This document shows positions 43,258 to 64,000 of a DNA stretch of 64,000 nucleotides, piece after piece. The position numbers and the translations under genes are program-made. Position 1 is the stretch's first letter; each line of letters begins with the position of its first letter. Below the pieces are notes generated by a model. That model worked only from the letters and a program-made list of their open reading frames with translations, searched no databases and was not told where the DNA came from. The stretch lies in contig NC_020054.1 in the NCBI RefSeq assembly GCF_000331105.1, forward strand, positions 5,424,555 through 5,488,554. Reading direction: 5' to 3'. This DNA comes from Fibrella aestuarina BUZ 2 (GTDB lineage: Bacteria; Bacteroidota; Bacteroidia; Cytophagales; Spirosomataceae).

Positions 43258-44133
43258 TTACCCGTTCAGGTTGTTGTATTGCCGGATATAGGTGCCGGGC
43301 GACATGCCGGTGGTTCGTTTGAACTGCCGGTTAAAGTTCGACAGGTTAGTATAGCCGCACGAAAACGCAATTTGGCTGATGGTTTCTTTCGATTCGCGTA
43401 GGTAGCGGCAGGCGTGCTCGACCCGCACCTCGTTGAGCAGCGTCGAAAACGTTTTGCGGGTGTGTTGCCGGAAGAACCGGCAAAACGCACCGGGCGTTAG
43501 GTTCGCCACGCTGGCCACGTCGTCGAGCGCGATGGGCGTGTGGTATTGTTCCAGAATAAAGGAGAAAACCCGTTCCAGCCGCTGCTGGTCTTCGGGGCGC
43601 TGAGGCCGCGTAAAGGCCGTCACCGACAGCACCTCCCGGCTGGCCGTCGTCGCCAGAAAATCCAGAATCGTCAGCAGCGTAACCAGTTGCTCAAAGGGGC
43701 GCTGCGTGGGCAGTTTCCTGAACTGATCGGGCAGGGGGTGGCCCTCGCGGCACCGAAACCGAATGCCGTGCTGCGCCTCGGTCAGCAGTTGTTGCAGATG
43801 CCGGGTTTCGGGGGCATTCAGCACCGTTTTTTCCACCTCGTCGGGCCGGAACAGGGCCGAAATGGCAATAGACCGCATCGACGAATCGGGCAGAAAGTAG
43901 CCGGGATCGCTGCGCAGCACGTGCGGCAGATTAGCCCCGAGCAGCAACACGTCGTTGGGCGCAAACCGATCGATCTTGTCGCCCACGATCAACGTCCCCT
44001 CCCCTTCCTGAATGAGCGTCAGCTGGATTTCCGGGTGAAAATGCAGCAGTTTGTAGAAGTGGGGGAAGCTATCCTGCTCAACCCGAAACGACCGATCGTC
44101 GCTAGCCAGTACTTTAAATAATAGCGGCTTCAT
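43258..44133 (-). CDS. AraC family regulator, divergent from the hydroxyproline operon
   Basis: Starting at the ATG at 44133 gives 291 residues. The N-terminal half is a cupin-like sensing domain (HFHPEIQLTLIQEGEGTLIVGD ~40-60, split here by its typical turn). The C-terminal ~190-288 carries two helix-turn-helix motifs with HACRYLRESKETISQIAFSCGYTNLSNF and FKRTTGMSPGTY. Its position, divergent from the DapA-family/epimerase genes with a 145-bp gap, makes it the likely activator of hydroxyproline catabolism. An upstream reading to 44172 is possible but less like the family. Confidence 0.9.
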   Translation of the reverse strand: MKPLLFKVLASDDRSFRVEQDSFPHFYKLLHFHPEIQLTLIQEGEGTLIVGDKIDRFAPNDVLLLGANLPHVLRSDPGYFLPDSSMRSIAISALFRPDEVEKTVLNAPETRHLQQLLTEAQHGIRFRCREGHPLPDQFRKLPTQRPFEQLVTLLTILDFLATTASREVLSVTAFTRPQRPEDQQRLERVFSFILEQYHTPIALDDVASVANLTPGAFCRFFRQHTRKTFSTLLNEVRVEHACRYLRESKETISQIAFSCGYTNLSNFNRQFKRTTGMSPGTYIRQYNNLNG

Positions 44134-44160
44134 CAATACATTTTTTACGAGTCTACCTTC

Positions 44161-44182
44161 ATTCACCCACAAAGTAGTGAAT
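44161..44182. promoter_or_regulatory. Dyad in the AraC/hydroxyproline intergenic gap
   Basis: ATTCAC at 44161-44166 and GTGAAT at 44177-44182 form an inverted repeat with 10 nt between. It lies between the divergent regulator and catabolic genes, where an operator is expected. This is the only dyad I noticed there, and binding by the AraC protein is a guess. Confidence 0.3.
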
Positions 44183-44278
44183 ATAATACCATTGTTTATG
44201 AATCGGTAGCAAACGAGGGGTCAATTGGGCCGGTACCTTTACAGTATACTAGCAACGCCAATCATACCCCTTATCGCT

Positions 44279-45268
44279 ATGAACGTTACAACCCGTTGGG
44301 AAGGTGTCTATCCCGCGCTACTGACCCCGTTTACGGCCGACGACCAGCTTGATCTGCCCCTGTTCGAAAAAAACCTCCATGCGCAGCTGGACGCCGGCGT
44401 GCACGGCTTCATCATCGGTGGCTCACTGGGCGAAGCCAGTACATTGCAGAATCAGGAAAAAATCGAACTGCTGCAATCAGCACTGGCAGTATGCGAAGGC
44501 AACGTACCTGTGCTGATCAACATCGCCGAGCAGGCTACCCGGCAGGCTATCCTCTGCGCGCAGGAGGCTGAAGCCAACGGGGCCGACGGGCTGATGCTGC
44601 TGCCCCCCATGCGCTACCCCGCCGATGCCCGCGAGACCGTGACGTTCTTCAAAGCCGTAGCGAAGGAAACTTCCCTGCCGATCATGATCTACAACAACCC
44701 GTATGATTACAAGATCATGACCACGGTGGCGATGTTTGAGGAACTGGCCGAACTGCCCAACATTCAGGCGGTGAAGGAATCGACCCGCGACCTCACCAAC
44801 ATCACCCGGATGCGCAACGCCTTTGGCGACCGCTTCAAGCTGATGGGCGGCGTGGATACGCTGGCGCTGGAAGCCCTGTTGCTGGGTTGCGATGGTTGGG
44901 TTGGTGGCCTTGTTGATGCCTTCCCCGCCGAAACGATGGCGATTTACAACCTGGCTAAAGCGGGTCAGGTAGCCGAAGCACTCGACATCTACCGTTGGTT
45001 TATGCCCCTGCTCGAACTCGACATTCACCCCAAACTGGTGCAATACATCAAGCTGGCGGCCCAGGCTACGGGCATCGGCTCGGAACACGTGCGTGCGCCC
45101 CGCCTCCCGCTGGTCGGCGCCGAACGCGAGCAGGTGCTCAGCATCATCGAAACGGCTATGGCCAAGCGGCCCATGCTGGCGACCGGTAAACCCGTGGCCG
45201 AACCGGGCGCTTCAGCCCCGCTTAACCCCGCCCTGACGACCTTGAACCCGGCTGTATTCATTAACTAG
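44279..45268 (+). CDS. DapA-family enzyme, probable pyrroline-4-hydroxy-2-carboxylate deaminase
   Basis: The ATG at 44279 gives 329 residues of a dihydrodipicolinate synthase-like TIM barrel. The Schiff-base Lys is K166 in AVKESTRD and the catalytic Tyr is Y138 in MIYNNP; GGSLGEASTL is the family's substrate loop. In hydroxyproline pathways a DapA homologue deaminates the cyclic imine from D-hydroxyproline to 2-oxoglutarate semialdehyde. The next gene, a hydroxyproline epimerase, starts 2 nt after its stop, so assignment to this step rather than lysine synthesis is well supported by context. Confidence 0.88.
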   Translation: MNVTTRWEGVYPALLTPFTADDQLDLPLFEKNLHAQLDAGVHGFIIGGSLGEASTLQNQEKIELLQSALAVCEGNVPVLINIAEQATRQAILCAQEAEANGADGLMLLPPMRYPADARETVTFFKAVAKETSLPIMIYNNPYDYKIMTTVAMFEELAELPNIQAVKESTRDLTNITRMRNAFGDRFKLMGGVDTLALEALLLGCDGWVGGLVDAFPAETMAIYNLAKAGQVAEALDIYRWFMPLLELDIHPKLVQYIKLAAQATGIGSEHVRAPRLPLVGAEREQVLSIIETAMAKRPMLATGKPVAEPGASAPLNPALTTLNPAVFIN

Positions 45269-45270
45269 GT

Positions 45271-46275
45271 ATGGCTGAATACCACTTTTTCTGCATCGAT
45301 GCGCACACCTGTGGCAACCCCGTGCGGGTAGTCACGGGTGGGAGCATTCCCTTTTTGCAGGGTGCTTCGATGAGCGAAAAACGGCAGCATTTCCTGCGCG
45401 AATTCGACTGGATTCGGACGGGGCTGATGTTTGAGCCGCGCGGCCACGACATGATGTCGGGCAGTATTCTGTACCCACCCATCGACCCGGCCAACGACGC
45501 GGGCGTGCTGTTTATCGAAACGTCGGGTTGCCTGCCCATGTGCGGCCACGGCACCATCGGCACGGTCACGGTAGCGATCGAGCGCAACCTGATCCGGCCC
45601 AAAACGCCGGGCGTGCTGCTGCTGGAAGTCCCCGCCGGGCTCGTCCGGGCCGAATATGTGATGGATGGCTCCAAAGTGACGTCGGTGAAGATCACGAACA
45701 TCAAGTCGTACCTCGCCGCCGAAAACCTGACCGTTGACTGCCCCGATCTGGGTACGTTGACCGTCGACGTGGCCTACGGAGGAAACTTCTACGCCATCGT
45801 TGATCCGCAGCCCAATTTCCCCGGCCTGGAACACTACAACGCCGAGCAACTGATTGGCTGGGCGCGGGTGATGCGGCAACGGATGAACGAGCAATACACG
45901 TTTGTGCATCCCGAGAACCCGACGATCAACGGTCTGAGCCATATCCTGTGGACTGGCAAACCGCTGCTGGACAGCTCGACCGCCCGCAATGCCGTGTTTT
46001 ACGGCGACAAGGCCATCGACCGCTCGCCCTGCGGCACAGGTACGTCGGCGCGGATGGCCCAACGCTACGCCAAAGGCCTGCTAAAACCGGGCGACGTGTT
46101 CGTGCACGAAAGCATCATCGGCTCCATTTTCAACGGCCGCATCGAAGCCGAAACCGAACTGGCGGGCCAACCGGCCATTGTACCGAGCATTGAAGGCTGG
46201 GCGCGGATTCATGGCTACAACCACCTGATTCTGGACGAAGCCGACCCCTACGTACATGGGTTTCAGGTTATTTAA
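45271..46275 (+). CDS. 4-hydroxyproline 2-epimerase (proline racemase family)
   Basis: The 334-residue protein has both catalytic cysteines of the epimerase class: C91 in MCGHGTIG and C254 in DRSPCGTGTSAR. A second Cys at the latter position (rather than Ser or Thr) distinguishes true racemases/epimerases from the dehydratase subgroup. It interconverts trans-4-hydroxy-L-proline and cis-4-hydroxy-D-proline, the entry step. It is tightly coupled to the DapA-family gene upstream, and an octad repeat element follows its stop. Confidence 0.92.
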   Translation: MAEYHFFCIDAHTCGNPVRVVTGGSIPFLQGASMSEKRQHFLREFDWIRTGLMFEPRGHDMMSGSILYPPIDPANDAGVLFIETSGCLPMCGHGTIGTVTVAIERNLIRPKTPGVLLLEVPAGLVRAEYVMDGSKVTSVKITNIKSYLAAENLTVDCPDLGTLTVDVAYGGNFYAIVDPQPNFPGLEHYNAEQLIGWARVMRQRMNEQYTFVHPENPTINGLSHILWTGKPLLDSSTARNAVFYGDKAIDRSPCGTGTSARMAQRYAKGLLKPGDVFVHESIIGSIFNGRIEAETELAGQPAIVPSIEGWARIHGYNHLILDEADPYVHGFQVI

Positions 46276-46276
46276 A

Positions 46277-46361
46277 GAGTGAAAGGGCGAACGAGTGGCG
46301 CGGCCAGGAAATGCGCCTCTTCACTCATTCACGCTTACACGCATTCACCCTTCCACTCATT
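46277..46361. repeat. Octad-periodic dyad element after the epimerase stop
   Basis: The left arm (46277-46300) reads as 8-nt words GAGTGAAA, GGGCGAAC, GAGTGGCG. The right arm (46322-46361) reads CACTCATT, CACGCTTA, CACGCATT, CACCCTTC, CACTCATT. The arms pair imperfectly. The element starts 1 nt after the epimerase stop and sits between two genes of the hydroxyproline operon. A related octad run lies at 52392-52431. It resembles the 7-nt elements in placement but has a different period and base word. Confidence 0.6.
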
Positions 46362-46373
46362 CGTTTTTTTCTT

Positions 46374-47615: not shown

Positions 47616-47681
47616 CGCAACTCCCCTATCCGGTGAACGCGACGACGCACGTATGGCGTTGCCTAACCAACCTTACCGCAT

Positions 47682-49229
47682 ATGACAGACGCACAACCAG
47701 CAACCGATATGTTTCAGGGTATCAACCCCGCTACCGGCGAAGCCCTGCCCGGTTTTTTCTCCGAAGCTACCGTCGATGAGGTAGCGCAGGCCTGTGAGCA
47801 GGCCGCCGTTGCTTTTGCTACGTACCGCCAGAAATCAGGTGCCGAAAAAGCGCGTTTTCTGGAGGCCATTGCGGCCGAAATCGAAGCACTGGGCGACGAG
47901 CTGCTCACGCGGGCGCAGGCCGAATCGGGTCTGCCACTGGCTCGCCTGACGGGCGAACGCGGCCGCACGACGGGGCAACTCCGGCTGTTTGCCGAGTACC
48001 TGCGCGACGGCTCGTGGGTCGACGCCCGCATCGACACGGCCCTGCCCGACCGGCAACCCCTCCCCCGCCCCGACCTGAGGCAGATGCTGCGCCCGCTGGG
48101 ACCTGTTGGCGTGTTTGGCGCGAGTAATTTCCCGCTGGCCTTTTCGGTAGCGGGTGGTGATACGGCCTCGGCGCTGGCGGCCGGTTGCCCCGTTGTGGTC
48201 AAAGCGCACCCAGCCCATCCAGGTACGTCGCAGCTCGTTGGCGAAGCCATTGAGCGGGCCGTGGCGGCTTCGGGTATGCCCGCCGGTACGTTCGCGCTGA
48301 TTCACGGCCGCACCACGGCCGTCGGCATGGCCATCGTGGAGCACCCGGCCATCAAAGCCGTTGGGTTTACGGGCTCCTTACGCGGTGGCCGGGCCTTATT
48401 CGACGCCGCCGCCCGCCGCCCCGAACCCATTCCGGTTTACGCCGAGATGGGCAGCACCAACCCGGTCTTCTTCCTGCCGGGCATTCTGAAAGAAAAAGGC
48501 GCCGCACTGGCCCAGCAGTACGTTGGGTCGGTGACGCTGGGCGTGGGGCAGTTCTGTACGAACCCCGGCCTGTCGGTGGTGCAGCGGGCCCCCGAAGCCG
48601 ACACCTTCGTAGAGGAATCGGGCAAGGCCGTTGGGCAACTGGCGCCCGCGACGATGCTCACCAAGGGCATTTTTCAGGCGTTCACGAAGGGTATCGACAA
48701 GCTGAGCCAGACGGCGGGCATTCAGGTGCTGGCGCAGGCCAACCCCGCCGATAGCTTTGCCAACGGCACGCCGACGCTGCTGACGACAACCGCCGACGCC
48801 GTACTGGCCAACCCGGCGATTGCGGAGGAAGTCTTTGGTCCAAGCAGCGTGATCGTGCAAGCCAACGACCGCGAGCAACTGCTGGCGGTGGCGCGTGGGC
48901 TGGAAGGCCACCTGACCGCCACCGTTTTTGGCACCGACGCCGAACTGGCCGATTACGCCGACTTGCTCGCCATTCTGGAGCAGAAGGTTGGTCGCCTGCT
49001 GATCAATGGCTTCCCAACGGGCGTTGAAGTGAGCCACGCCATGCATCACGGTGGCCCCTACCCCGCCACCACCGATTCACGGTCGACCTCGGTGGGTACC
49101 AATGCCATCGTGCGCTTTGCCCGCCCCGTCTGCTACCAGAATTTCCCCGATGCACTCCTGCCCGACGAACTGAAGGCCAGCAACCCGCTGCACATCTGGC
49201 GACTGGTCGACGGGAAACGAACGAATTAA
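47682..49229 (+). CDS. Aldehyde dehydrogenase, probable 2-oxoglutarate semialdehyde dehydrogenase
   Basis: The 515-residue protein has catalytic Cys292 in VGQFCTNPG and general base Glu255 in YAEMGSTNP. FGASNFPLAF and GFTGSLRGGRALFDAAARRPEPIPVYAE are typical of alpha-ketoglutaric semialdehyde dehydrogenases. It converts 2,5-dioxovalerate to 2-oxoglutarate and delivers hydroxyproline carbon to the TCA cycle. It follows the FAD enzyme with a 66-bp gap and completes the pathway in this operon. A hairpin follows. Confidence 0.92.
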   Translation: MTDAQPATDMFQGINPATGEALPGFFSEATVDEVAQACEQAAVAFATYRQKSGAEKARFLEAIAAEIEALGDELLTRAQAESGLPLARLTGERGRTTGQLRLFAEYLRDGSWVDARIDTALPDRQPLPRPDLRQMLRPLGPVGVFGASNFPLAFSVAGGDTASALAAGCPVVVKAHPAHPGTSQLVGEAIERAVAASGMPAGTFALIHGRTTAVGMAIVEHPAIKAVGFTGSLRGGRALFDAAARRPEPIPVYAEMGSTNPVFFLPGILKEKGAALAQQYVGSVTLGVGQFCTNPGLSVVQRAPEADTFVEESGKAVGQLAPATMLTKGIFQAFTKGIDKLSQTAGIQVLAQANPADSFANGTPTLLTTTADAVLANPAIAEEVFGPSSVIVQANDREQLLAVARGLEGHLTATVFGTDAELADYADLLAILEQKVGRLLINGFPTGVEVSHAMHHGGPYPATTDSRSTSVGTNAIVRFARPVCYQNFPDALLPDELKASNPLHIWRLVDGKRTN

Positions 49230-49253
49230 CTCCAACTGATCAATGTAACCCCG

Positions 49254-49300
49254 GCCCCCAATGCCGTGCATCAGCCGATGTATGGCGTTGGGGGCTATTT
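49254..49300 (+). terminator. Terminator-like hairpin at the end of the hydroxyproline operon
   Basis: A 17-bp stem (49255-49271 with 49278-49294) pairs through several G-U wobbles, has a 6-nt loop, and is followed by a short TATTT. It lies 25 nt after the aldehyde dehydrogenase stop. Confidence 0.55.
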
Positions 49301-49437
49301 CATGCGCGTAAACCAAGTACGTACCTGAATTACCGACAGGCGCCGCCACTTACGTATGCCTCAGGTACATACCTGATCCGCCAAACATCCGCCGGGCCGA
49401 ACCAGTTAAATCAATGAAACTGATACAACAGCAACTT

Positions 49438-49848
49438 ATGAAAACGATTCGCGCCCTGAGCCTTGTCCTCCTGATTGCACTGGCGGGCAGCTCGTGTACC
49501 CCGAACATGAAGTTCAACACGTCGACCATCGTACCGTCGGCAACGGGTGAGATCAAAGTACGGAAAGACCGAAACCAGAACTACGCCATCGACATACGGA
49601 TCTTTAATCTGGCCGAACCCGAGAAGCTCAGCCCGGCCAAAAGCGCCTATGTGGTCTGGATGGAAAGTGACGGCAATAGCTCGCCCAAGAAATTAGGCCG
49701 GATCAACACCGGCACCGGGCTTTTCTCCAAGGCGCTGAAAGCTGAGCTACACACCACCGTTACAACCAAACCAACGCGCATTTTTGTGTCAGCGGAAGAC
49801 AGCCCCGACGTCGATTACCCACAGGGTGCCGTGGTGCTGAGTACCTAG
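49438..49848 (+). CDS. Small hypothetical lipoprotein
   Basis: The ATG at 49438 gives 136 residues with a lipobox LIALAGSSC (an ATG eight codons upstream is possible). The mature part has an N-terminal NMKFNTSTIVPSATGEIKV and forms a small beta-rich domain with no family motif I recognise. Outer-membrane or periplasmic location is inferred. A terminator follows its stop, and it lies between the hydroxyproline operon and the arabinofuranosidase genes without clear relation to either. Confidence 0.65.
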   Translation: MKTIRALSLVLLIALAGSSCTPNMKFNTSTIVPSATGEIKVRKDRNQNYAIDIRIFNLAEPEKLSPAKSAYVVWMESDGNSSPKKLGRINTGTGLFSKALKAELHTTVTTKPTRIFVSAEDSPDVDYPQGAVVLST

Positions 49849-49905: not shown

Positions 49906-49922
49906 GCTTGTAGCGAAATTGG

Positions 49923-52268: not shown

Positions 52269-52365
52269 CGTTTTCGTACAAGTCAATGGTAGACCCACCA
52301 GACGTCAACCAGTTTTCGCCCGATGGCGATTGCATTTGCCAACATTGATTCGAGGACTCAGGGCA

Positions 52366-52431
52366 TGTCAGGTCGGGAACCTGACACCACGCACCCACGC
52401 ATCCAGTCACTCTTTCACTCATTCACTCTTT
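52366..52431. repeat. Octad run at the GH127 stop plus a short hairpin
   Basis: 8-nt words run from 52392 to 52431 (CACCCACG, CATCCAGT, CACTCTTT, CACTCATT, CACTCTTT) and cover the last codons and stop (52419-52421) of the minus-strand GH127 gene. An 8-bp hairpin (52366-52373 with 52379-52386, TGTCAGGT) lies just beyond. The word CACTCATT is shared with the element at 46277-46361. Confidence 0.5.
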
Positions 52432-54851: not shown

Positions 54852-55303
54852 ATAAAAGACAGGCTTAGCGCAGTAAAATAGTATTAGCGATCGGGTAAGC
54901 ATTCCGGCTGAAGCCCGGTGCCCGCAACAAAGCCGGATCGGTTTTCGGCGGCAATAGGCAATGGCAATCAAGGGCAAAATACCACCAAAACGGCTCAAAT
55001 AAGCTAGTTCAGGGCTGGAACACAACGAAGGTACAGTGGCAGGCAGGCCGTTTTTATGCTGTAGTTCGCGAGTGCTGATACTTTTTTAACAAGTGCATAA
55101 ACAAGCCCATTGAATGCAGCCTGAATTCACTTTATTGCTTTCAGGTTCTTTGGCACGAGCCGAAACTGGCCGTAGTTTATTCTGAAAACGACCTCTTTCG
55201 CCAGCCCCGCCAACGATCTACCCGACTCGTCCGGCCTGTACTGTGTCCGTCGGGTTTACTGCCTGACTATACCCAATTGTAACCATCCTCGTCTTGCCAA
55301 CCC
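54852..55303. other. Intergenic region between divergent GH127 and permease genes
   Basis: This 452-bp gap holds the promoters of two divergent units. I see no gene, hairpin or convincing TAnnTTTG match. A weak promoter-like pair (TTTG with TAGTTTAT 20 bp later) lies near 55155-55185 on the plus strand. Confidence 0.45.
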
Positions 55304-56728
55304 ATGGAAACAGCCACCAAACCTGTTAACGAGTTCGTAGCCCGGCTGGGCCTGCTCGACGCGACGATGATTGTGGCCGGTTCCATGATTGGGTCGGGGA
55401 TCTTTATCGTCGCGGCCGAAGTGACCCGCAGCGTGGGCGGGGCGGGCTGGATGCTTGCCATGTGGCTGCTGGCGGGGTTGGTGACGGTCATTGCCGCCGT
55501 GAGTTATGGCGAACTGGCGGCCATGTTTCCCCGCGCGGGTGGTCAGTACGTCTACCTGCGCGAGGCCTACAACCCGCTGGTCGGGTTTCTGTATGGCTGG
55601 TCGTTTTTTGCCGTCATCCAGACCGGCACCATCGCGGCCGTGGGCGTGGCCTTTGCCAAATTCACGGCCTACCTCATTCCCGCCTTCAGCGACACCAATT
55701 TCCTGCTCGATTTGGGCTTCTTCCGGCTGTCGGCGGCGCAGCTGGTGTCGATTTTCGTGATCGTGCTGCTCACCTACGTCAACAGCCGGGGCGTGAAAGA
55801 GGGTGCGGCGCTGCAAACGTTTCTCACGATCGTGAAGTTGCTGTCGCTCTTTGGTCTCATCATCTGCGGGTTTATCTGGGGCGCGAAGGCCGACGTCTGG
55901 AACGCCAACTGGCAAAACGCCTGGCACCTGGCCAGCCTGACCAAAAACGGGGACGCCCTTTCCTACACCACCTTATCTGCCCTGGGGGCGTTCGGCGCCA
56001 TTGCCATCGCCATGAAAGGCACGCTGTTTTCGAGCGACTCGTGGCACAGCATCACCTCGATTGCCGGGGAGGTAAAACGGCCCGAACGCAACATCGGCCT
56101 CAGCCTTGTGCTGGGTACGTTGGTCGTGACGGTCATCTACGTGCTGACCAACCTGATGTACCTCGCCGTGGTGCCGCTCAACGACATCGCCTTTGCGCCG
56201 AGTGACCGAGTGGGCGTGGTGGCGGCCGACTACATCTTTGGCAACAGCGGCACCATCATCATCGCGCTCATGGTCATGATTTCAACCTTCGGCTGCAACA
56301 ACGGGCTGATTCTGTCGGGCGCTCGGGTGTATTACATCATGGCCAAAGACGGGCTGTTTTTCCGGAAAGCAGGGCAACTCAACCAAAACGACGTACCTGG
56401 CTATAGCCTCTGGATGCAGTGCCTGTGGGCCAGCGTGTTGTGCCTCACCGGCGAATACAACAACTTGCTGGCACTGGTCATTTTTGGCGTATTGATTTTC
56501 TACATCCTGACTATTCTGGGCATCTACCGCCTGCGTCGGCTCCAACCCGATTTACCCCGGCCCTACAAAGCGCCCGGTTACCCCTATTTGCCCGCCGTGT
56601 ATGTGGTGATCGCCCTCGCGCTGGCGGTATTGCTGTTGTTTTTCGAAACCAAGTATACCCTGCCGGGACTGGGCATTATCCTGGCCGGTATACCCATCTA
56701 TTACTGGCTCATCCGGCAACCAGACTAA
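55304..56728 (+). CDS. APC family amino acid permease
   Basis: The 474-residue protein has about twelve transmembrane helices. The first carries the APC motif VAGSMIGSGIFI, and later segments include SYGELAAMFPRAGGQYVYLRE and SNNGLILSGAR-type CNNGLILSGARVYYIMAKDG. It would import amino acids or small peptides across the inner membrane. The adjacent secreted peptidases and hydroxyproline genes suggest hydroxyproline or proline as cargo, which is inference. It is the first gene of the plus-strand run to 60909. Confidence 0.9.
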   Translation: METATKPVNEFVARLGLLDATMIVAGSMIGSGIFIVAAEVTRSVGGAGWMLAMWLLAGLVTVIAAVSYGELAAMFPRAGGQYVYLREAYNPLVGFLYGWSFFAVIQTGTIAAVGVAFAKFTAYLIPAFSDTNFLLDLGFFRLSAAQLVSIFVIVLLTYVNSRGVKEGAALQTFLTIVKLLSLFGLIICGFIWGAKADVWNANWQNAWHLASLTKNGDALSYTTLSALGAFGAIAIAMKGTLFSSDSWHSITSIAGEVKRPERNIGLSLVLGTLVVTVIYVLTNLMYLAVVPLNDIAFAPSDRVGVVAADYIFGNSGTIIIALMVMISTFGCNNGLILSGARVYYIMAKDGLFFRKAGQLNQNDVPGYSLWMQCLWASVLCLTGEYNNLLALVIFGVLIFYILTILGIYRLRRLQPDLPRPYKAPGYPYLPAVYVVIALALAVLLLFFETKYTLPGLGIILAGIPIYYWLIRQPD

Positions 56729-56826: not shown

Positions 56827-59112
56827 ATGAAACCACGCATCGACCTACGTTTACGCATTAAACCAGGCCGTAGTTGGGCCTTTATCTTGCTGCTAGCCGG
56901 TAGCGAAATGCTGGCACAGGGCACCGCCAGTGATTACAAACGCAGTGAGGCCCTGAAGGAAAAACTGCGCGACAAACTCTACAACGCCCCGACGGCCATC
57001 AACTGGCTACCCAAAAGCAACCGGTTCTGGTATCTGACCCGCACCCGCAAAGGAAGCGAGTTTATCGTCGTCGACGCCGCCAAACGGACCCGGCAACCCG
57101 CTTTCGACGCGCAGCAGGTCGCGCAGAAACTAGCCGAAGCCACCGGTAAAACGCTCGACCCCTACAAACTTCCGTTCAACACCATCACCTTCGGTAAAGA
57201 CGACGAAAGCGTCGAGTTTGTGGCCGAAGGGTCGGTCTGGCAATATGGGCCGGGATCGGTGGCGTTTCGGAAGAAAGGGCCCTTTACGGCCGAAGTAAAC
57301 GACCGCCGCTATTGGGGCGAAGGCCGCGACGAAACCGCCAAACGAACGGTTACGTCGCCCGACAGCAACTGGACCGCCTACGTCAAAAACTACAACGTAT
57401 ACATCAAATCCCGGCAAACGGGTGCCGAGAGCCAGCTGAGTTTCGACGGGTCGGCGGGCGATTACTACGCCAACAGCATCCAGTGGGCACCCGACTCGAA
57501 AAAGCTGGTCGCCACCAAACTGCGCCCCGCCGAAAAGCACCTGATTCACTTCGTCCGCTCGTCGCCGACCGATCAGTTGCAGCCCCGCCTCGAAAACCGC
57601 GAGTACCTCAAGCCCGGCGATGCGTTGCCCGCGCGGCGGCCACAACTCTTTCTGGTTGAGAGCAAACAGCACCTTCCGGTGTCCGACGCGCTGTTTAACC
57701 AGCAGTTCAGCCTCTCGAACCTGAACTGGCGGGCCGATAGCCGCGCCTTCACGGTTGAATACAACCAACGGGGGCATCAGCTGTACCGCGTGCTGGAAGT
57801 AAACGCCAGTACGGGCGCCGTCAGGACGTTGATCGAGGAACAGAGCAAAACCTTTATCGACTACAGCGGCAAGCGGTTCCGCTACGACGTGGCCGACGGC
57901 AAGGAGCTGGTCTGGGCGTCGGAACGTGACGGCTGGAACCACCTGTACCTCTATGACGGCCCATCGGGCCTGGTGAAAAAACAGATCACCAAAGGCGAGT
58001 GGGTGGTACGCGAGGTAGTGCACGTCGATGAGCCCACCCGCACGATTCTGTTTGCGGCGAGTGGCAAACAGCCGGGGCAGGACCCGTATTTGATTCAGTA
58101 TTATCGCGTTAAGTTCGACGGGACGGACCTCACCGCGCTGACGGCAGAGAACGCCAACCACGTCGCGCGCTTTTCGCCTGATTTTCAGTATTTTACTGAC
58201 ACCTACTCGCGCGTCGACCTGCCGCCGACGACCGTGCTGCGTAGCGCCAAAGACGGGTCGGTGCTGATGGAGCTGGAAAAAGCCGACCTCACCGACTGGC
58301 AGCAGGCGGGCTGGAAAGCACCCGAGGTGTTTACGGCCAAAGGACGCGACGGTAAGACCGACATCTGGGGCGTCATCATCCGGCCCACCAATTTCGATTC
58401 GACCCGAACGTACCCCGTCATTGAAAACATCTACGCCGGACCGCACGGGTCGTTTGTTCCCAAGACGTTCATGGCCAACGCCTTTGCCATGCACGAACTG
58501 GCCGAACTGGGCTTTGTGGTCGTGCAGATCGATGGCATGGGTACGTCGAACCGCTCGAAAGCCTTCCACGACGTGTGCTGGAAAAACCTGAAAGACGCGG
58601 GCTTCCCCGACCGGATCCTATGGCTACAGGCCGCCGCCCGGAAATACCCCTCGCTCGACCTGAACCATGTGGGCATCTACGGGACGTCGGCGGGTGGGCA
58701 GAGCGCGGCCGGGGCCTTGCTTTTCCACCCCGACTTTTACAAAGTGGGGGTTTCGTCGTGCGGGTGCCACGACAACCGCATGGACAAGATGTGGTGGAAC
58801 GAGCAGTGGATGGGCTACCCCATCGGCCCCCACTATGCCGAATGCTCGAACGTCACGAACGCCCACAAACTACAGGGGAAACTGATGCTGCTGGTGGGCG
58901 AAGTCGATGATAACGTCGACCCCGCCTCGACCATGCAGGTGGCCGATGCGCTCATCAAAGCCCAGAAAGATTTTGAGCTGGTGGTGCTGCCGGGGGTTGG
59001 TCACTCGTCGGGAGGAGACTTCGGCGAGCGCAAACGTCGCGACTTTTTCGTCCGCCATCTCCTGGGCGTCAACCCGCCTGCCTGGCCCGCCCCGGCTCCC
59101 GCCGCACCCTAG
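56827..59112 (+). CDS. S9 family (dipeptidyl peptidase IV-like) serine peptidase
   Basis: The 761-residue protein has an N-terminal signal-like segment (AGSEMLAQG), a DPP IV-type beta-propeller (~80-490), and an alpha/beta hydrolase domain. The catalytic triad is Ser621 in YGTSAGGQS, Asp694 or 695 in EVDDNVDP, and His726 in GVGHSSGG. Family members cleave after proline (and sometimes hydroxyproline), often removing dipeptides from the N-terminus. It would degrade proline-rich peptides in the periplasm. It is followed closely by the DUF885 gene. Confidence 0.9.
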   Translation: MKPRIDLRLRIKPGRSWAFILLLAGSEMLAQGTASDYKRSEALKEKLRDKLYNAPTAINWLPKSNRFWYLTRTRKGSEFIVVDAAKRTRQPAFDAQQVAQKLAEATGKTLDPYKLPFNTITFGKDDESVEFVAEGSVWQYGPGSVAFRKKGPFTAEVNDRRYWGEGRDETAKRTVTSPDSNWTAYVKNYNVYIKSRQTGAESQLSFDGSAGDYYANSIQWAPDSKKLVATKLRPAEKHLIHFVRSSPTDQLQPRLENREYLKPGDALPARRPQLFLVESKQHLPVSDALFNQQFSLSNLNWRADSRAFTVEYNQRGHQLYRVLEVNASTGAVRTLIEEQSKTFIDYSGKRFRYDVADGKELVWASERDGWNHLYLYDGPSGLVKKQITKGEWVVREVVHVDEPTRTILFAASGKQPGQDPYLIQYYRVKFDGTDLTALTAENANHVARFSPDFQYFTDTYSRVDLPPTTVLRSAKDGSVLMELEKADLTDWQQAGWKAPEVFTAKGRDGKTDIWGVIIRPTNFDSTRTYPVIENIYAGPHGSFVPKTFMANAFAMHELAELGFVVVQIDGMGTSNRSKAFHDVCWKNLKDAGFPDRILWLQAAARKYPSLDLNHVGIYGTSAGGQSAAGALLFHPDFYKVGVSSCGCHDNRMDKMWWNEQWMGYPIGPHYAECSNVTNAHKLQGKLMLLVGEVDDNVDPASTMQVADALIKAQKDFELVVLPGVGHSSGGDFGERKRRDFFVRHLLGVNPPAWPAPAPAAP

Positions 59113-59157
59113 TCTATCGATACCGTACCGCTATTCACCTACCAACCACCTGCTTGT

Positions 59158-60909
59158 ATGCGAACCCCCTACGCCTTCACGACACTGCTTTGTTTTGTTC
59201 TGGTATTCGCGGATGGGCTTCCGAGCCGGGCGCAGTCACGAACGAATCCACTGGCTGATGTTAATCCGCAGAGCAGCGATGTGCATCATTTGCTGACGCA
59301 GTACTACGCCGATTGGGGCAGTCTGAGCCGGTTTTACACCGTAGCGGGGTCGCCCGAGCGCCGGGTACGTTTCCAGCAATTTCATACCGACTACCTCAAC
59401 CGGCTGGAACAGCTCGATTTCAACCGCATGACCACCGACAGCCGGGTCGACTACCTCTTGTTTCGGCGCGATCTACAGCAGCAGTTAGGCAAGCTCGCGG
59501 CGGAAGCAACCGAGCGGGAGCAGATCAACGCCTGGTTTCCCTTTGCCGATTCGGTTTACGCGGTGGAAAAGCGGCGGCGGCGCGGGCATGTGCTCAACCC
59601 GCAGCAATTCGCCCAGAACCTGACGAACATGAGTCAGCAGATCGGTCAGTTGCAAAGCGCACTATCGAAAGAAACCAACCTGAACCCGGCCCTGTTGATG
59701 CGCGCCATCTCGACTGCCGAGGGGTTGCAGTCGGGGCTTAAAAGCGTGTATACCTTTTACAACCACTACGAGCCCGGGTTTTCGTGGTGGATTCCGCAGC
59801 CTTACCAGAAAACCGACAGCCTGCTGACGGCCTACACTGCCTTTTTCCGCAAGAAAAGCCGTGACGCCGCCCCGGTCAAGGATGATGGCAGCGGCATTAC
59901 GGGCGTGGCCGTTGGGCGCGACGAACTGCTGCGGCAGTTGCAGGTCGAACTGATTCCGTACTCGCCCGAGGAGTTGATCGAGATCGCCAACAAGGAGTTT
60001 GCCTGGTGCGACCGCGAGCTGTTGAAGGCATCACGCGAGATGGGTTTCGGCGACAACTGGAAGGCGGCGCAGGAAAAAGTCAAAAACAGCTACGTACCTG
60101 AGGGCCGTCAGCCCGAGTTAATCCTGCGGCTGTTGAACGAGTCGGTCGCGTTTTTGAAAGCCAAAAACCTGATCACCATCCCGCCCATTGCCGAAGAAAC
60201 CTGGCGCATGAGCATGATGTCGCCCGAGCGGCAGCTGGTTAACCCCTTCTTTCTGGGTGGCGAGGTGATCCAGATTTCGTACCCCACCGAGGGCATGAAA
60301 CACCCCGACAAGCTGATGAGTATGCGCGGCAACAACCCCCATTTTTCGCGGGCGACCGTGCACCACGAACTCATTGCGGGCCACCATTTGCAGGGGTTCA
60401 TGAACAACCGCTATAAGATCTACCGCAATTTCGACACCCCCTTCTGGACCGAAGGCTGGGCACTCTACTGGGAAATGCTCCTCTGGGATCAGGGGTTTCC
60501 GCAGTCACCCGAAGACCGCATCGGGATGCTGTTCTGGCGAATGCACCGCTGCGCTCGGATCATCTTTTCGCTCAATTATCACCTGGGCAAGTGGGGCCCG
60601 CAGCAGTGCATCGACTTCCTCGTCGACCGGGTTGGGCACGAGCGGGCCAATGCCGAGGGGGAAGTGCGGCGGTCGTTCATCGGGGGGTACCCGCCGCTGT
60701 ATCAGCTGGCGTACATGACGGGCGGGTTTCAGTTTCTGGCCCTCAAAAAGGAACTCGTCGACAGTGGCCGCATGACCCACAAGCAGTTTCATGACGCCGT
60801 ACTACAGATCAACGCCATGCCGGTGGAGATGATCCGCGCCATTCTGACCAACCAGAAGCTGCCCAAAGACTTTAAAACGTCGTGGCGGTTCTACGATCTG
60901 AAACCCTAG
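59158..60909 (+). CDS. DUF885-family secreted metallopeptidase-like protein
   Basis: The 583-residue protein has a signal peptide (LPSRAQS, cleavage ~26). The active site is seen as HHELIAGHH at residues 402-410, followed by LQGF; this matches the DUF885 HExxxGH zinc motif. Other conserved parts are WTEGWALYWE (~430) and the Arg/Gly-rich GEVRRSFIGGYPPLYQLAYMTGG. DUF885 proteins are putative peptidases often found with S9 peptidases and transporters. It lies 45 nt after the S9 gene, so they are probably co-transcribed. Confidence 0.88.
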   Translation: MRTPYAFTTLLCFVLVFADGLPSRAQSRTNPLADVNPQSSDVHHLLTQYYADWGSLSRFYTVAGSPERRVRFQQFHTDYLNRLEQLDFNRMTTDSRVDYLLFRRDLQQQLGKLAAEATEREQINAWFPFADSVYAVEKRRRRGHVLNPQQFAQNLTNMSQQIGQLQSALSKETNLNPALLMRAISTAEGLQSGLKSVYTFYNHYEPGFSWWIPQPYQKTDSLLTAYTAFFRKKSRDAAPVKDDGSGITGVAVGRDELLRQLQVELIPYSPEELIEIANKEFAWCDRELLKASREMGFGDNWKAAQEKVKNSYVPEGRQPELILRLLNESVAFLKAKNLITIPPIAEETWRMSMMSPERQLVNPFFLGGEVIQISYPTEGMKHPDKLMSMRGNNPHFSRATVHHELIAGHHLQGFMNNRYKIYRNFDTPFWTEGWALYWEMLLWDQGFPQSPEDRIGMLFWRMHRCARIIFSLNYHLGKWGPQQCIDFLVDRVGHERANAEGEVRRSFIGGYPPLYQLAYMTGGFQFLALKKELVDSGRMTHKQFHDAVLQINAMPVEMIRAILTNQKLPKDFKTSWRFYDLKP

Positions 60910-60937
60910 CCGCCCCCAACCCTTCCGGTCGACAAAG

Positions 60938-60972
60938 CGCCCTCTTCAACTTACATGGAGAGGGCGTTTTTT
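60938..60972 (+). terminator. Intrinsic terminator after the peptidase run
   Basis: An 8-bp stem (60938-60945 with 60959-60966, CGCCCTCT) with a 13-nt loop is followed by six T residues. It lies 28 nt after the DUF885 stop, separating it from the SusC gene. Confidence 0.8.
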
Positions 60973-61240
60973 GTAACTAGAAAACACCTTCACCGGCAGC
61001 AGTAATCGACAATAAACACTATGATAAAATACTTATTCTTTTGTACTTATTTAATTGTTTATTAATCTAATTACCCAACAAGTATAATAACCGATCTATC
61101 GTCTTTTTTTCAATATAATATTCTGTATTAAGTGATAGTATTGGCATAAAATTTCATAAAAATGAATATTGCTAACATATTATAACACCATATATTTGAC
61201 GGTAGTTAACCTCACTTATAATCCGAATTTAATCTGTTCT
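60973..61240. other. AT-rich leader of the SusC gene
   Basis: This region of the 331-bp gap between the DUF885 and SusC genes is very A+T-rich and holds the promoter described at 61168-61198. I see no gene. Confidence 0.7.
61168..61198 (+). promoter_or_regulatory. Bacteroidetes-type promoter of the SusC gene
   Basis: ATTG at 61168-61171 and TATATTTG at 61191-61198 match the -33 TTG and -7 TAnnTTTG elements with exactly 19 bp between. The predicted transcription start is near 61205, about 36 nt before the ATG at 61241. It is the best promoter match in the window. Confidence 0.65.
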
Positions 61241-64000
61241 ATGGTAAGAAGTCTACTGATGAGTATACTCATGGTATGCTCATTCTGGGATCCCTGCTGG
61301 GCTCAGGAACGAACCCTTAAAGGAAGGGTTACAGCCGCCGAAGACGGAAGCCCGATCCCGGGCGCTTCGGTTGTCTTAAAAGGTACCACGAAAGGCGCCA
61401 ACACCGACGTTGATGGGGCCTACTCGATTGCCATACCGGCGAGTGGTGGCACACTGGTTGTCAGTTTTGTGGGGACAGTTACCCAGGAAGTGGAGATTGG
61501 CAACCGCACCCAGGTGAACATTACGCTGGCTGCCGACACCAAGAGCCTTCAGGAAGTGGTCGTGACCGCTCAGGGCATTGTCCGCGAGAAGAAAGCGCTG
61601 GGTTACGCCGTCACCACGTTGGATAACAAGCTGCTGGAAGACCGACCACAAGCCGATGTGGGCCGGGTCCTGCAGGGCAAAATTCCGGGGGTTAACATTA
61701 CGGCTACATCGGGGGTTTCGGGCACGGGAACGAGTATCAACATCCGCGGTTTTTCGTCGATTACGGGCTCAACCCAACCGTTGTTTGTCGTCGATGGCGT
61801 GCCGTTCAATTCCAGTACCAACTCCCGCGATGGGTTTACGGGCGGGGGCCAATCAGCCTCCAGCCGATTTCTGGACCTCGACCCCAATAACATCGAGAAT
61901 ATCAGCGTGTTAAAGGGGCTGGCCGCTACCGTTACGTATGGCGATCAGGGCCGAAACGGGGTGATTCTGGTGACGACCAAAAACGGCAGCAAGAAGGCCC
62001 GGCCTACCGAAATCACGCTGACCCAGTCTGTCTTCGCCAACACGGCCAACCTGCCTACGTACCAGAACGACTATGTTGGGGGATTCCAGCAGAACCTGGG
62101 GTACTTCTTCAGCAACTTCGGCCCCACCCTCGCCGAAGCCGCCGCCTACCCGTCGCAGAATACCAACACGGCATTGACCAATCACCCGTATGCGTTTCTG
62201 ACCAATGCGGCGCTGCGGTCGGCGATGGCCCCGTACGTGGCGTCGGTAAGTCCGTATAAAATGCAGGTCTTCCCCGACAACGTGAAGGACTTTTTCCGAA
62301 CCGGGCTTATCTCCAACAGCTCGATCAATCTGTCGGGCGGCAGTGAGCGAGTTGGCTATAACCTCTCGGTGGGCTATAATAACGAACAGGGGTATATCCC
62401 CGAAAACGGCCTGAAACGCCTCAACATCGGGGCGGGCATCCGGGCGCAGTTGACCAAAAAGCTGAGCATCAGCACCTCATTCAACTACGCCAACACGGAC
62501 CAGTATTCGCCGCCACTCAATGCAGGGCAGGGTAACAACTCGCTGGGCGGTTTCCCATCGGTGCTAGCCAACGTGTTGTTCACACCCCGGCAGGTCGATC
62601 TGATGAACTGGCCGTATGAAAACCCGGTCGACGGCGGCACGGTGTATTTCCGCTCCGGCAACGACATTCCGAACCCGCGCTGGATTCTGGCCAATTATAA
62701 AACGACGGGTGTGGTCAACCGCTTCTTTACCACGACCAACCTGACGTATGACATCGCCCGGGATCTGGTGCTGCTGTATAAGGTGGGCCTCGATACCTAC
62801 ACCGAAAACCAGGAGTATAAATTCAACAAGGGTGGGGTCGACTTCGTCAATGGGTTTTACAACACCTACGACATCAAGAACACGATCTGGGATAACAGCG
62901 TGATTCTGTCTTACACCAAACCCCTGGCCGACCGCTTCACGCTCTCGGGCCGGATCGGTGGTAACATGCGTAACGACCGGTCTGGTTCTATCTTCGTAAC
63001 GAGCCAGAATCAGCTGGCCCGCAACCTGTTCCGCCACAGCAATTTCATCGACAACGTGGCGTCGAACGGCGAAGTCGAGCAGACGCGCATCGGGGTATTT
63101 GGCGAACTCACGGCCGACATCAACGATTACCTGTTTCTGAACCTGGCCGCCCGCAACGACTGGACCTCGACGGTAGAAATCGCCAACCGCCAGATCTTTT
63201 ACCCCTCGGCCAGTGTCTCGTTTGTACCCACGTCGGCCATCAGCAGTCTACAGGGCAACAGCGTGCTCAGCTTCCTGAAAGTCCGGGCGGGCATCGGTAC
63301 GTCGGCGGGCTTTCCCAACCCGTACAGCACGCGTAACGTCTTGAATCAGAGCGCCAGAGGCTGGCTCAACTCGTCGGGCGCTACCGTGCAGACCCACTCG
63401 GTCGACAACACCCTGGGCAACCCGAACCTGAAGCCCGAGTTACATACCGAGATCGAACTGGGCCTTGAAGGGCGCCTGTTCAATAACCGGCTTAGCTTCG
63501 ACATCACGGGCTACCAGCGCACTACCCGCGACCTGATTACCCGCACCCCCCTCGACGCCTCGACGGGCTACACCGCCACGACGATTAACATCGGCAAAAT
63601 CCGCAACGAGGGGATCGAAGTGAGCCTGTCGGGCACCGCCATCAAGCGCAATGGTTTCTCGTGGGACGTGACCGGCGTGTTCTCGCGCAACGTACCCAAG
63701 GTGCTTGATCTGGGTGGTACGCTTCAGGAAGTGCAGATCGCGGGCTTTGGGGGCACGCTGGGCAACTACGCCGTGGTTGGGCAGCCCTTTAACGTCATTA
63801 AAGGCACGGGTTTCCGGCGCAACGACCAGGGCCAATACCTCATCGACGGGCAGGGGTATCTGCTGGCTACGACCTCGCCGGTGGTACTGGGTAATCCCAA
63901 CCCGGCGTTCACGTCGAGCCTGATCAACGAATTCCGCTACAAAAACTTCTCGCTTAACGTAATGATCGCGTACCGGCATGGCGGGGTTATGTACTCGTCG
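61241..64000 (+). CDS. SusC/RagA family TonB-linked outer membrane receptor, 3' end outside window
   Basis: The frame opens with a signal peptide (SFWDPCWAQE, cleavage ~22) and runs 920 codons to the window end without a stop. A carboxypeptidase-like regulatory domain is at ~25-100 (GRVTAAEDGSPIPGASVVLKG). A plug domain follows (~110-245) with NIRGFSSITGS, FVVDGVPFN and GRNGVILVTTK, then the start of the barrel. It imports glycan or peptide fragments with TonB. A SusD partner should follow beyond the window. It probably belongs to the arabinofuranosidase and peptidase locus upstream, although a terminator separates their transcripts. Confidence 0.93.
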   Translation, partial: MVRSLLMSILMVCSFWDPCWAQERTLKGRVTAAEDGSPIPGASVVLKGTTKGANTDVDGAYSIAIPASGGTLVVSFVGTVTQEVEIGNRTQVNITLAADTKSLQEVVVTAQGIVREKKALGYAVTTLDNKLLEDRPQADVGRVLQGKIPGVNITATSGVSGTGTSINIRGFSSITGSTQPLFVVDGVPFNSSTNSRDGFTGGGQSASSRFLDLDPNNIENISVLKGLAATVTYGDQGRNGVILVTTKNGSKKARPTEITLTQSVFANTANLPTYQNDYVGGFQQNLGYFFSNFGPTLAEAAAYPSQNTNTALTNHPYAFLTNAALRSAMAPYVASVSPYKMQVFPDNVKDFFRTGLISNSSINLSGGSERVGYNLSVGYNNEQGYIPENGLKRLNIGAGIRAQLTKKLSISTSFNYANTDQYSPPLNAGQGNNSLGGFPSVLANVLFTPRQVDLMNWPYENPVDGGTVYFRSGNDIPNPRWILANYKTTGVVNRFFTTTNLTYDIARDLVLLYKVGLDTYTENQEYKFNKGGVDFVNGFYNTYDIKNTIWDNSVILSYTKPLADRFTLSGRIGGNMRNDRSGSIFVTSQNQLARNLFRHSNFIDNVASNGEVEQTRIGVFGELTADINDYLFLNLAARNDWTSTVEIANRQIFYPSASVSFVPTSAISSLQGNSVLSFLKVRAGIGTSAGFPNPYSTRNVLNQSARGWLNSSGATVQTHSVDNTLGNPNLKPELHTEIELGLEGRLFNNRLSFDITGYQRTTRDLITRTPLDASTGYTATTINIGKIRNEGIEVSLSGTAIKRNGFSWDVTGVFSRNVPKVLDLGGTLQEVQIAGFGGTLGNYAVVGQPFNVIKGTGFRRNDQGQYLIDGQGYLLATTSPVVLGNPNPAFTSSLINEFRYKNFSLNVMIAYRHGGVMYSS

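What the first reader, a model, noticed from the sequence alone, without database searches (positions are those of the whole stretch)
43258..64000. Candidate locus for consuming plant hydroxyproline-rich glycoproteins
All five functions of trans-4-hydroxyproline catabolism sit together: AraC regulator, epimerase with both Cys (C91, C254), D-amino-acid dehydrogenase, DapA-family deaminase and semialdehyde dehydrogenase. Within 20 kb are two cysteine-type beta-L-arabinofuranosidases, one of the GH127 class whose known substrate is arabinose on hydroxyproline, an amino acid permease, a proline-specific type S9 peptidase, a DUF885 peptidase and a SusC receptor. Together they could strip arabinose from extensin-like proteins, cut the proline-rich backbone, import the pieces and burn hydroxyproline to 2-oxoglutarate. 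I do not know of a described single locus coupling these steps. The linkage is inferred from neighbourhood; the enzyme families are established.
Basis: partly seen in the sequence, partly recalled or inferred. Interest (0 to 1): 0.85.

Follow-up and report, generated by a model that had tools for sequence, protein, structure and literature searches.

The report
Plant wall glycoprotein scavenging gene cluster
A Bacteroidota bacterium carries, side by side, genes that look able to strip arabinose from hydroxyproline-rich plant wall proteins, cut and import the remains and burn the hydroxyproline; similar groupings recur in a minority of relatives from several families, more often than chance would give.

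Summary
The genes are there: AraC regulator, deaminase, Cys-Cys 4-hydroxyproline epimerase with epimerase-type substrate residues, D-amino-acid dehydrogenase, aldehyde dehydrogenase, one GH146 and one GH127 enzyme, permease, S9 peptidase, DUF885 protein, SusC; SusD follows just outside the window. Of the 80 closest loci in named genomes, 19 have it within 30 kb, in several gene orders and six named families. Unbiased neighbour clustering there returned the window's gene set, plus GH51, aminopeptidase P and arabinose genes. Chryseolinea serpens has permease, Hyp operon, S9, GH127 and GH146 on one strand. Yet linkage is a minority state (2 of 12 full-length rows in an even phylum draw). Best reading: a utilisation locus for hydroxyproline-arabinosides, extensin-type. 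Corrections: arabinose bound directly to hydroxyproline is, in print, mainly a GH146 substrate; the S9 enzyme is not shown to be proline-specific and lacks two glutamates of the prolyl tripeptidyl type; no arabinose catabolism is adjacent here. Substrate and regulation are untested.

The parts
43258..44172 (-). AraC-family regulator, divergent from the hydroxyproline operon
   Evidence: PF12833/PF02311; relatives at 68-77 percent sit beside the Hyp operon in three genomes and beside GH127 without it in two
44225..45268 (+). DHDPS-family enzyme, candidate pyrroline-4-hydroxy-2-carboxylate deaminase
   Evidence: PF00701 191.6 bits; below the dapA equivalog cut-off, 161.9 v 206; matched in the stretch round the epimerase in 34 of 37 genomes looked at
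45271..46275 (+). trans-4-hydroxyproline 2-epimerase
   Evidence: PF05544 427 bits, NF010578 587 bits; C91/C254; S63, H224, Y244 = epimerase-type residues
46311..47615 (+). FAD D-amino-acid dehydrogenase, candidate cis-4-hydroxy-D-proline dehydrogenase
   Evidence: PF01266 238 bits; NF001933 256.9, below its cut-off 383
47682..49229 (+). aldehyde dehydrogenase, candidate 2-oxoglutarate semialdehyde dehydrogenase
   Evidence: PF00171; best NCBIfam hits are 2,5-dioxovalerate and 2-ketoglutarate semialdehyde dehydrogenases, far below cut-off; homologues lie between deaminase and epimerase in e.g. L063, L075, L096, L121
49923..52298 (-). GH146-type beta-L-arabinofuranosidase
   Evidence: PF07944 420 bits plus DUF6805; 5opj 513 bits; ETC 354-356 and CC 423-424
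52419..55025 (-). GH127 beta-L-arabinofuranosidase with C-terminal F5/8-like domain (start probably about 54851)
   Evidence: PF07944 371 bits, PF20736, PF20737, PF22633; 6ex6 769 bits, 3wkw 328 bits, cysteine/zinc-site residues aligned
55304..56728 (+). amino acid permease (APC superfamily)
   Evidence: PF13520 192.6 bits; recurs near GH127 in 14 of 80 loci
56827..59112 (+). S9 peptidase, DPP-IV-like, specificity open
   Evidence: PF00930 and PF00326; G-T-S621-A-G-G; differs from 2d5l at two glutamate positions
59158..60909 (+). DUF885 putative metallopeptidase
   Evidence: PF05960 168 bits; HHELIAGHH motif visible
61169..64000 (+). SusC-type TonB-dependent receptor, runs out of the window; SusD-like_2 and a 189-aa lipoprotein-like gene follow
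   Evidence: PF07715/PF00593; continuation in L002, SusD PF12771 142 bits

Best explanation
The region is a utilisation locus for arabinosylated hydroxyproline peptides and proteins, most likely extensin-type. SusC/SusD brings glycopeptides through the outer membrane. The GH127 and GH146 cysteine glycosidases take off the beta-L-arabinofuranose, GH146 probably the residue bound to hydroxyproline and GH127 the beta-linked residues outside it. The S9 and DUF885 enzymes cut the bared peptide, and the permease takes up free amino acids or hydroxyproline. The epimerase, D-hydroxyproline dehydrogenase, deaminase and semialdehyde dehydrogenase turn hydroxyproline into 2-oxoglutarate. Shown here: gene content, catalytic residues in the epimerase and both glycosidases, and repeated physical linkage in other genera, partly as one-strand arrays. 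Inferred: substrate, order of steps, cell location, common regulation by the AraC protein.
For: Family and residue tests. Linkage: 10/23 orthologues against 1/119 paralogues within 20 kb; 13/80 within the held flanks and 6 more within 30 kb, 19/80 in all (the two sets share some genomes, e.g. L122 and L164). The linkage label needs at least 15 changes on an 89-row tree. Neighbour clustering without regard to the window: GH146 26, AraC 20, GH51 15, permease 14, dehydrogenase 13, deaminase 13, DUF885 12, S9 12, AraR-like 11, epimerase 11, symporter 9, aldose epimerase 8, aminopeptidase P 7, AraA 7, AraD 7 of 80 loci (names from one scanned representative each). One-strand arrays in Chryseolinea, Ferruginibacter, Parafilimonas and Arcicella. 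G283, reached by the even phylum draw, has SusC-SusD-GH127-DUF885-GH146-S9 convergent with deaminase-ALDH-epimerase-dehydrogenase. Biochemistry of relatives: GH146 members act on Araf-Hyp (PMC10850190 passages); an alpha- then beta-arabinosidase relay on Ara4-Hyp (PMC6085000 abstract).
Against: Linkage is a minority state: 2 of 12 full-length (one of them the window's own) and 2 of 11 short-type GH127 rows in genomes with an epimerase in the phylum draw; 61 of 80 loci do not show it, some on short contigs. In the window the Hyp operon, the GH pair and the permease-peptidase-Sus group alternate in direction. The closest solved GH127 (6ex6; recalled to be BT3674) belongs to a locus listed for arabinogalactan. 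No GH43, GH51 or araBAD lies beside the window's locus among the genes scanned; araA and GH51 are far away. Among the 80 loci SusC is not more frequent where the epimerase is near (6/19 v 16/61), nor are AraA (2/19 v 6/61) and M61 (1/19 v 7/61), and DUF885 only weakly (6/19 v 7/61, p 0.07). With relatedness allowed for, the peptidase and permease associations are only suggestive (median p 0.07 and 0.06) and those of GH146 and GH51 are not significant.
Confidence: 0.7

Rival explanations
1. The locus serves arabinogalactan-proteins: GH127 removes terminal beta-L-arabinofuranose from type II arabinogalactan, and the Hyp pathway burns the backbone.
For: 6ex6 is the closest solved relative and the BT3674-87 locus is listed for arabinogalactan (PMC3243724 passage); AGPs also contain hydroxyproline.
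Against: No galactanase or other type II arabinogalactan enzyme appeared among the recurring neighbour clusters that were scanned (20 of 30 unlabelled clusters found in four or more loci).
Confidence: 0.13
2. Neighbours without common purpose: a hydroxyproline operon, a beta-arabinosidase pair for other plant glycans and a peptide-uptake group that happen to lie together.
For: Alternating directions of transcription in the window; 13 of 23 family orthologues are not near an epimerase, nor are 10 of 12 in the phylum draw; SusC shows no association with the epimerase among the 80 loci.
Against: Linkage recurs with different gene orders and at least 15 label changes, and in several genera the genes share one strand with short gaps.
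Confidence: 0.1
3. The glycosidases act on pectic arabinan or RG-II, as some characterised GH146 and GH127 members do.
For: BT0349 (GH146) acts on arabinan-derived oligosaccharides and BT1003 is an aceric acid hydrolase (PMC10850190 passages); NF049879 matches the GH127 gene.
Against: The NF049879 score, 474.6, is half its cut-off of 950; no pectin lyase, GH28 or GH43 appeared among the scanned recurring neighbours (20 of 30 unlabelled clusters).
Confidence: 0.05

Closest known systems
Bifidobacterium longum HypBA1/HypBA2/HypAA cluster
   Same: beta-L-arabinofuranosidases for arabinosides of hydroxyproline-rich glycoproteins, with an importer (start of the PMC7263609 abstract in search listings; PMC10850190 passages)
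   Different: ABC transporter and GH121 partner; the texts seen mention no hydroxyproline catabolism. The window has SusC/SusD and peptidases, no GH121 or GH43 among the ORFs scanned, and a full Hyp pathway
Xanthomonas euvesicatoria XeHypBA1/BA2/AA
   Same: Relay that strips Ara4-Hyp of HRGPs (abstract); XeHypBA1 is placed in GH146 by a later paper
   Different: The abstract names GH43, GH121 and XeHypBA1 (called GH127 there) and mentions no Hyp catabolism or Sus transport; the body of the paper was not read
hydroxyproline/proline racemase superfamily gene clusters defined by genome neighbourhood networks (PMC4113996)
   Same: Same catabolic route (general knowledge); peptidase families occur beside some superfamily genes of Bacilli (passage)
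   Different: The words arabin and glycoside hydrolase do not occur in the main text held
Bacteroides thetaiotaomicron BT3674-87 (arabinogalactan) and BT0348-69 (arabinan) loci
   Same: Sus-type loci whose names span the GH127 (BT3674) and GH146 (BT0349) relatives (table row)
   Different: Listed for glycans; no Hyp or peptide catabolism in the passages seen

Membership tests
4-hydroxyproline 2-epimerase | two catalytic cysteines in MCGH and DRSPCGTG motifs | tested here: met
   C91 in PMCGHGT, C254 in DRSPCGTG
4-hydroxyproline 2-epimerase | epimerase-type residues: no Phe at site 1, His at site 4, Cys/Tyr at site 5 | tested here: met
   S63, H224, Y244, placed by their distance from the cysteines and not by an alignment to the enzymes of PMC4364671 section 22
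4-hydroxyproline 2-epimerase | activity on trans-4-hydroxy-L-proline | not testable with these tools
   NF010578 over its cut-off is the nearest proxy
trans-4-hydroxyproline catabolic operon | epimerase, D-Hyp dehydrogenase, deaminase, semialdehyde dehydrogenase adjacent | tested here: met
   44225-49229, one strand, by family; the exact activity of the last three is not fixed by a curated model
GH127 beta-L-arabinofuranosidase | catalytic, middle and C-terminal domains; Cys nucleophile and Glu/Cys zinc ligands | tested here: met
   (ETC 400-402, CACC 466-469); roles of the residues from PMC10850190 and recall
GH146 beta-L-arabinofuranosidase | closer to solved GH146 than to solved GH127 chains; Glu/Cys/Cys-Cys zinc site | tested here: met
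   5opj 513 and 8k7x 238 bits v 3wkw 41 bits; ETC and CC; that 5opj is BT0349, 8k7x Bll3HypBA1 and 3wkw HypBA1 is recalled
aceric acid hydrolase (BT1003 type) | NF049879 curated cut-off 950 | tested here: not met
   474.6 bits
B. longum Hyp-arabinoside cluster | GH121 and GH43 partners with ABC transporter | tested here: not met
   none among the scanned ORFs of the region and its continuation
Polysaccharide utilisation locus | SusC/SusD pair beside glycoside hydrolases | tested here: met
   SusC in the window, SusD just beyond; in L083 SusC-SusD-lipoprotein-GH127-GH146 run on one strand
DPP-IV / prolyl tripeptidyl peptidase | catalytic Ser in GxSxGG | tested here: met
   GTS621AGG
DPP-IV / prolyl tripeptidyl peptidase | glutamates that hold the free N-terminus of the substrate | tested here: not met
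   In the profile alignment to 2d5l an 11-residue segment with one Glu falls in a gap, and the Glu that is Ala in the 2z3w chain is aligned with Lys654, invariant in five homologues. That these are the two N-terminus-binding glutamates is recalled

The most novel reading that the evidence does not exclude
A dedicated Bacteroidota regulon eats intact arabinosylated hydroxyproline peptides (extensin or plant peptide hormones) as joint carbon and nitrogen sources. In its fullest form (Sediminibacterium-type loci) sugar removal, peptide cutting, arabinose catabolism and hydroxyproline catabolism are all in one locus. Its S9 enzyme, without the two glutamates of the prolyl tripeptidyl type and with Ala in place of Tyr next to the catalytic Ser, would be a hydroxyproline- or glyco-hydroxyproline-specific peptidase.
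Probability: 0.3. Interest if true: 0.82.

Novelty: new variant of a known kind. Interest (0 to 1): 0.66.

Why it matters
Extensins are abundant, hard-to-digest plant wall glycoproteins, and how their hydroxyproline returns to circulation is, to my knowledge, poorly described. A locus that couples glycan removal, peptide cutting and amino acid catabolism would extend the polysaccharide-utilisation-locus idea from glycans to whole glycoproteins. It would also give candidate enzymes for hydroxyproline-rich glycoproteins and a genetic marker for bacteria that feed on plant wall proteins. In eight literature searches (open-licence PubMed Central, of which only the top 3 to 25 rows were listed and several lists were cut) I saw no paper that links beta-L-arabinofuranosidases to hydroxyproline catabolism in one locus; subscription journals and preprints were not searchable.

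Tried and rejected
Rejected: that the GH127 gene is an aceric acid hydrolase (score half the cut-off). Rejected: chance neighbourhood, by the paralogue control. Not upheld: that the epimerase lies near GH127 generally; in the even phylum draw it does so for 2 of 12 full-length rows. Not upheld: association of SusC, AraA or M61 with the epimerase among the 80 loci, and, after allowing for relatedness, of GH146 and GH51. Led nowhere: the 144-aa ORF 49414-49848 had no Pfam or NCBIfam match and no tblastn match in L041-L100. The 721-aa ORF 52323-54488 on the other strand of the GH127 gene has no Pfam match and is taken as a shadow ORF. Structure prediction and fold search were not used, since sequence matches to solved relatives were strong for the main enzymes. 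Distances rest on coordinates that I copied by hand from the listings; rows that the listings cut off ('more matches are not listed') are not counted, nor is the second piece of the split G160 gene. The 37 genomes (6 with a GH127 match to the 52419-55025 protein in the stretch) were picked by score and genus, not at random. The tree is a quick one under one simple model, and the tool warned of long branches meeting (L124, L160, L161).
Full report
What is there. The window is G000:C2:5424555-5488554 of a 6.94-Mb genome. By shared contig lengths its genus group holds Fibrella forsythiae and Fibrivirga algicola (G069 and G040 match L122 and L104), so it is most likely a Fibrella-type member of Spirosomataceae; this is inferred. 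The epimerase is a Cys-Cys enzyme (C91, C254) and has Ser, His and Tyr at the three positions that PMC4364671 (section 22 read) gives as epimerase-type rather than proline-racemase-type, as placed by distance from the cysteines. It is the only PF05544 gene of the genome. The two PF07944 enzymes fall in different classes: 49923-52298 is GH146-type (5opj 513 bits) and 52419-55025 is GH127-type (6ex6 769 bits), with the cysteine/zinc-site residues in place. After SusC the contig continues with SusD-like_2 and a 189-aa lipoprotein-like gene; the further genes scanned (DUF808, GT2, TGT, AMP-binding) are unrelated. L-arabinose isomerase and a GH51 gene exist elsewhere in the genome (C2:3378042 and C2:5307521).

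Is it more than chance? Three tests. First, within the family: 200 genomes were searched for the epimerase family (147 with a match, 146 over the cut-off) and for the GH127 protein (136 with a match at E <= 1e-60). The GH127 rows fall into a high-scoring set (23 genes, 919 bits or more) and lower-scoring paralogues (775 bits or less). Of the 23, 10 lie within 20 kb of the epimerase; of 126 listed paralogue rows, 119 are in genomes with a listed epimerase and one (G011) lies within 20 kb. The epimerase lies in the held flank in 13 and within 30 kb in six more, placed by matching contig lengths and coordinates (L134 14.5, L146 18.2, L154 16.3, L163 13.4, L173 13.0, L175 26.0 kb): 19 of 80. The two sets share some genomes. 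Of the 77 of these genomes held for a whole-genome search, 64 have an epimerase over the cut-off (28 of 37; 36 of 40); for a 60-kb span in a genome of about 6 Mb roughly one in a hundred would be expected by chance (my estimate). Third, an even draw of 296 Bacteroidota genomes: 79 have an epimerase-family gene over the cut-off and 34 a GH127 match at E <= 1e-200. Of full-length GH127 rows in genomes with an epimerase 2 of 12 lie within 20 kb (the window's own and G283), and of short-type rows 2 of 11 (G375, G489). So the linkage is real but a minority state.

What the relatives look like. ORFs of the 80 loci were clustered without regard to the window. After GH127 itself the most frequent neighbours were GH146 (26 loci), the AraC regulator (20), a GH51 alpha-L-arabinofuranosidase (15), the permease (14), the D-amino-acid dehydrogenase (13), the deaminase (13), DUF885 (12), S9 (12), an AraR/NrtR-like regulator (11), the epimerase (11; 13 by tblastn), a sodium symporter (9), aldose epimerase (8), aminopeptidase P (7), AraA (7) and an AraD-type aldolase (7). 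Clusters without a window protein were named by one representative each; 20 of the 30 such clusters found in four or more loci were scanned. A GH20, a 211-aa and a DsbA-like cluster (7 loci each) recur only, or all but once, in Chitinophaga and look like conserved synteny. Examples: Chryseolinea serpens permease-deaminase-ALDH-epimerase-dehydrogenase-S9-GH127-GH146 on one strand; Ferruginibacter loci (L145, L153) deaminase-epimerase-dehydrogenase-DUF885-S9-GH146-GH127-GH51; Arcicella GH146-deaminase-epimerase-permease-GH127; Rufibacter deaminase-ALDH-epimerase-dehydrogenase-DUF885, a different S9, aminopeptidase P and GH127 (L187, L188); Sediminibacterium goheungense with arabinose genes, GH127-GH51-S9 and the Hyp operon with DUF885 and SusCD in one stretch (L157, L190). 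G283, reached by the even draw, has deaminase-ALDH-epimerase-dehydrogenase convergent with SusC-SusD-GH127-DUF885-GH146-S9 (its S9 is only 32 percent identical). In L083 (Spirosoma sp. 48-14) relatives of the window's SusC, SusD and lipoprotein gene (84, 86 and 81 percent) run into GH127-GH146 on one strand.

Evolution. On a quick tree of 89 GH127 sequences (26 with the epimerase within 30 kb) the linkage label needs 16 changes, at least 15 by well supported branches, against 22.8 on average for shuffled labels: repeated gain or loss, clustered by kinship. Among the 19 linked named loci the families are Spirosomataceae, Flectobacillaceae, Fulvivirgaceae, Hymenobacteraceae, Sphingobacteriaceae and Chitinophagaceae; L154 and L177 bear no family name. 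Loci with the epimerase also more often carry, in the 10-kb flanks, a peptidase gene (14/19 v 11/61), aminopeptidase P (6/19 v 1/61), permease (10/19 v 4/61), AraC (13/19 v 8/61), GH146 (11/19 v 18/61) and GH51 (9/19 v 9/61). SusC (6/19 v 16/61), AraA (2/19 v 6/61), AraR (3/19 v 8/61) and M61 (1/19 v 7/61) are not associated, and DUF885 alone is weak (6/19 v 7/61, p 0.07). Allowing for relatedness, 12 independent pairs give peptidase 6.0 with and 0.6 against (median p 0.07), permease 5.5 and 0.0 (median p 0.06), and nothing significant for GH146 and GH51 (all). A relative of the window's AraC (72-73 percent) sits beside GH127 in two genomes (L082, L086) whose Hyp operon elsewhere has no AraC match in the stretch held (L206, L207), and beside the Hyp operon in L043, L081 and L083. 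In other genomes an AraC relative stands with the Hyp operon without the GH127 orthologue (L061 71 percent; L051, L055, L072 and L076 61-62 percent), while L041 and L045 have the operon without it. This exchange suits one regulator for both modules but does not prove it.

Mechanism. Literature on relatives: XeHypAA, XeHypBA2 and XeHypBA1 remove Ara4-Hyp stepwise (PMC6085000, outline and abstract); XeHypBA1 and Bll4HypBA1 are GH146 and act on Araf-beta-Hyp, while HypBA1 (GH127) acts on Araf-beta1,2-Ara (PMC10850190, passages). The natural division of labour is therefore GH51 or another alpha-arabinosidase for the cap, GH127 for the outer beta-arabinose and GH146 for the arabinose on hydroxyproline. 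This order is inferred. The S9 enzyme is DPP-IV-like with an intact Ser motif. Against prolyl tripeptidyl peptidase 2d5l, an 11-residue segment with one glutamate has no counterpart in a profile of five homologues, a second glutamate (Ala in the 2z3w chain) is aligned with an invariant Lys, and the Tyr next to the Ser is Ala (the roles of these residues are recalled). Its specificity is open.

Limits. No expression or activity data. The closest solved GH127, 6ex6, is recalled (not from a call) to be BT3674, whose locus is listed for arabinogalactan (PMC3243724 passage), so an arabinogalactan-protein substrate stays possible. GH51, arabinose genes and aminopeptidase P belong to relatives' loci, not to the window's. 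An in-silico study of Latescibacteria (PMC4454575, passages) had proposed GH127 action on extensin, without hydroxyproline catabolism in the passages seen. A paper on root-associated Bacteroidota (PMC11892949) has none of the terms hydroxyproline, GH127, GH146, glycoprotein or extensin in its main text. The searches cover open-licence PubMed Central only, and long lists were cut.

Noticed in passing
window 49414-49848: 144-aa ORF with a lipoprotein-like N-terminus between the aldehyde dehydrogenase and GH146; no family match and no tblastn match in the related stretches searched.
   Followed up: partly
L083:2853-8634: Spirosoma sp. 48-14 keeps AraC, deaminase and dehydrogenase beside GH146/GH127 but its epimerase lies on another contig: loss or move of the epimerase from the cluster.
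   Followed up: partly
L095: In G160 the GH127 gene is split over two frames (rows 53-392 and 374-868 of the query), probably a pseudogene.
   Followed up: no
L090:5217-12994: In Runella-type genomes GH127 is followed by a conserved 672-aa protein with no Pfam match (six stretches), and in four of them a CarboxypepD_reg-like protein lies between S9 and GH127.
   Followed up: partly
L193:1804-10004, L194:7315-18534, L205:6516-15741: Mucilaginibacter-type genomes carry another, shorter GH127 about 2.5 kb from the Hyp operon: the same pairing with a different GH127 clade.
   Followed up: partly
L067: In G011 a paralogous GH127 (43 percent) sits between the epimerase and the dehydrogenase on one strand.
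   Followed up: no
L110: A candidate division KSB1 MAG carries a GH127 67 percent identical to the window's: transfer between phyla or a binning error.
   Followed up: no
L162, L166, L168, L180: Close GH127 relatives sit beside araBAD-type sets with an AraR-like regulator and symporter, without Hyp genes in the held flank: an arabinose-only version.
   Followed up: partly
L196:879-15418: In the genome of Chitinophaga rupis (G213) the Hyp operon stands with permease, DUF885 and GH146 on one strand and S9 nearby, while the GH127 gene is elsewhere.
   Followed up: partly
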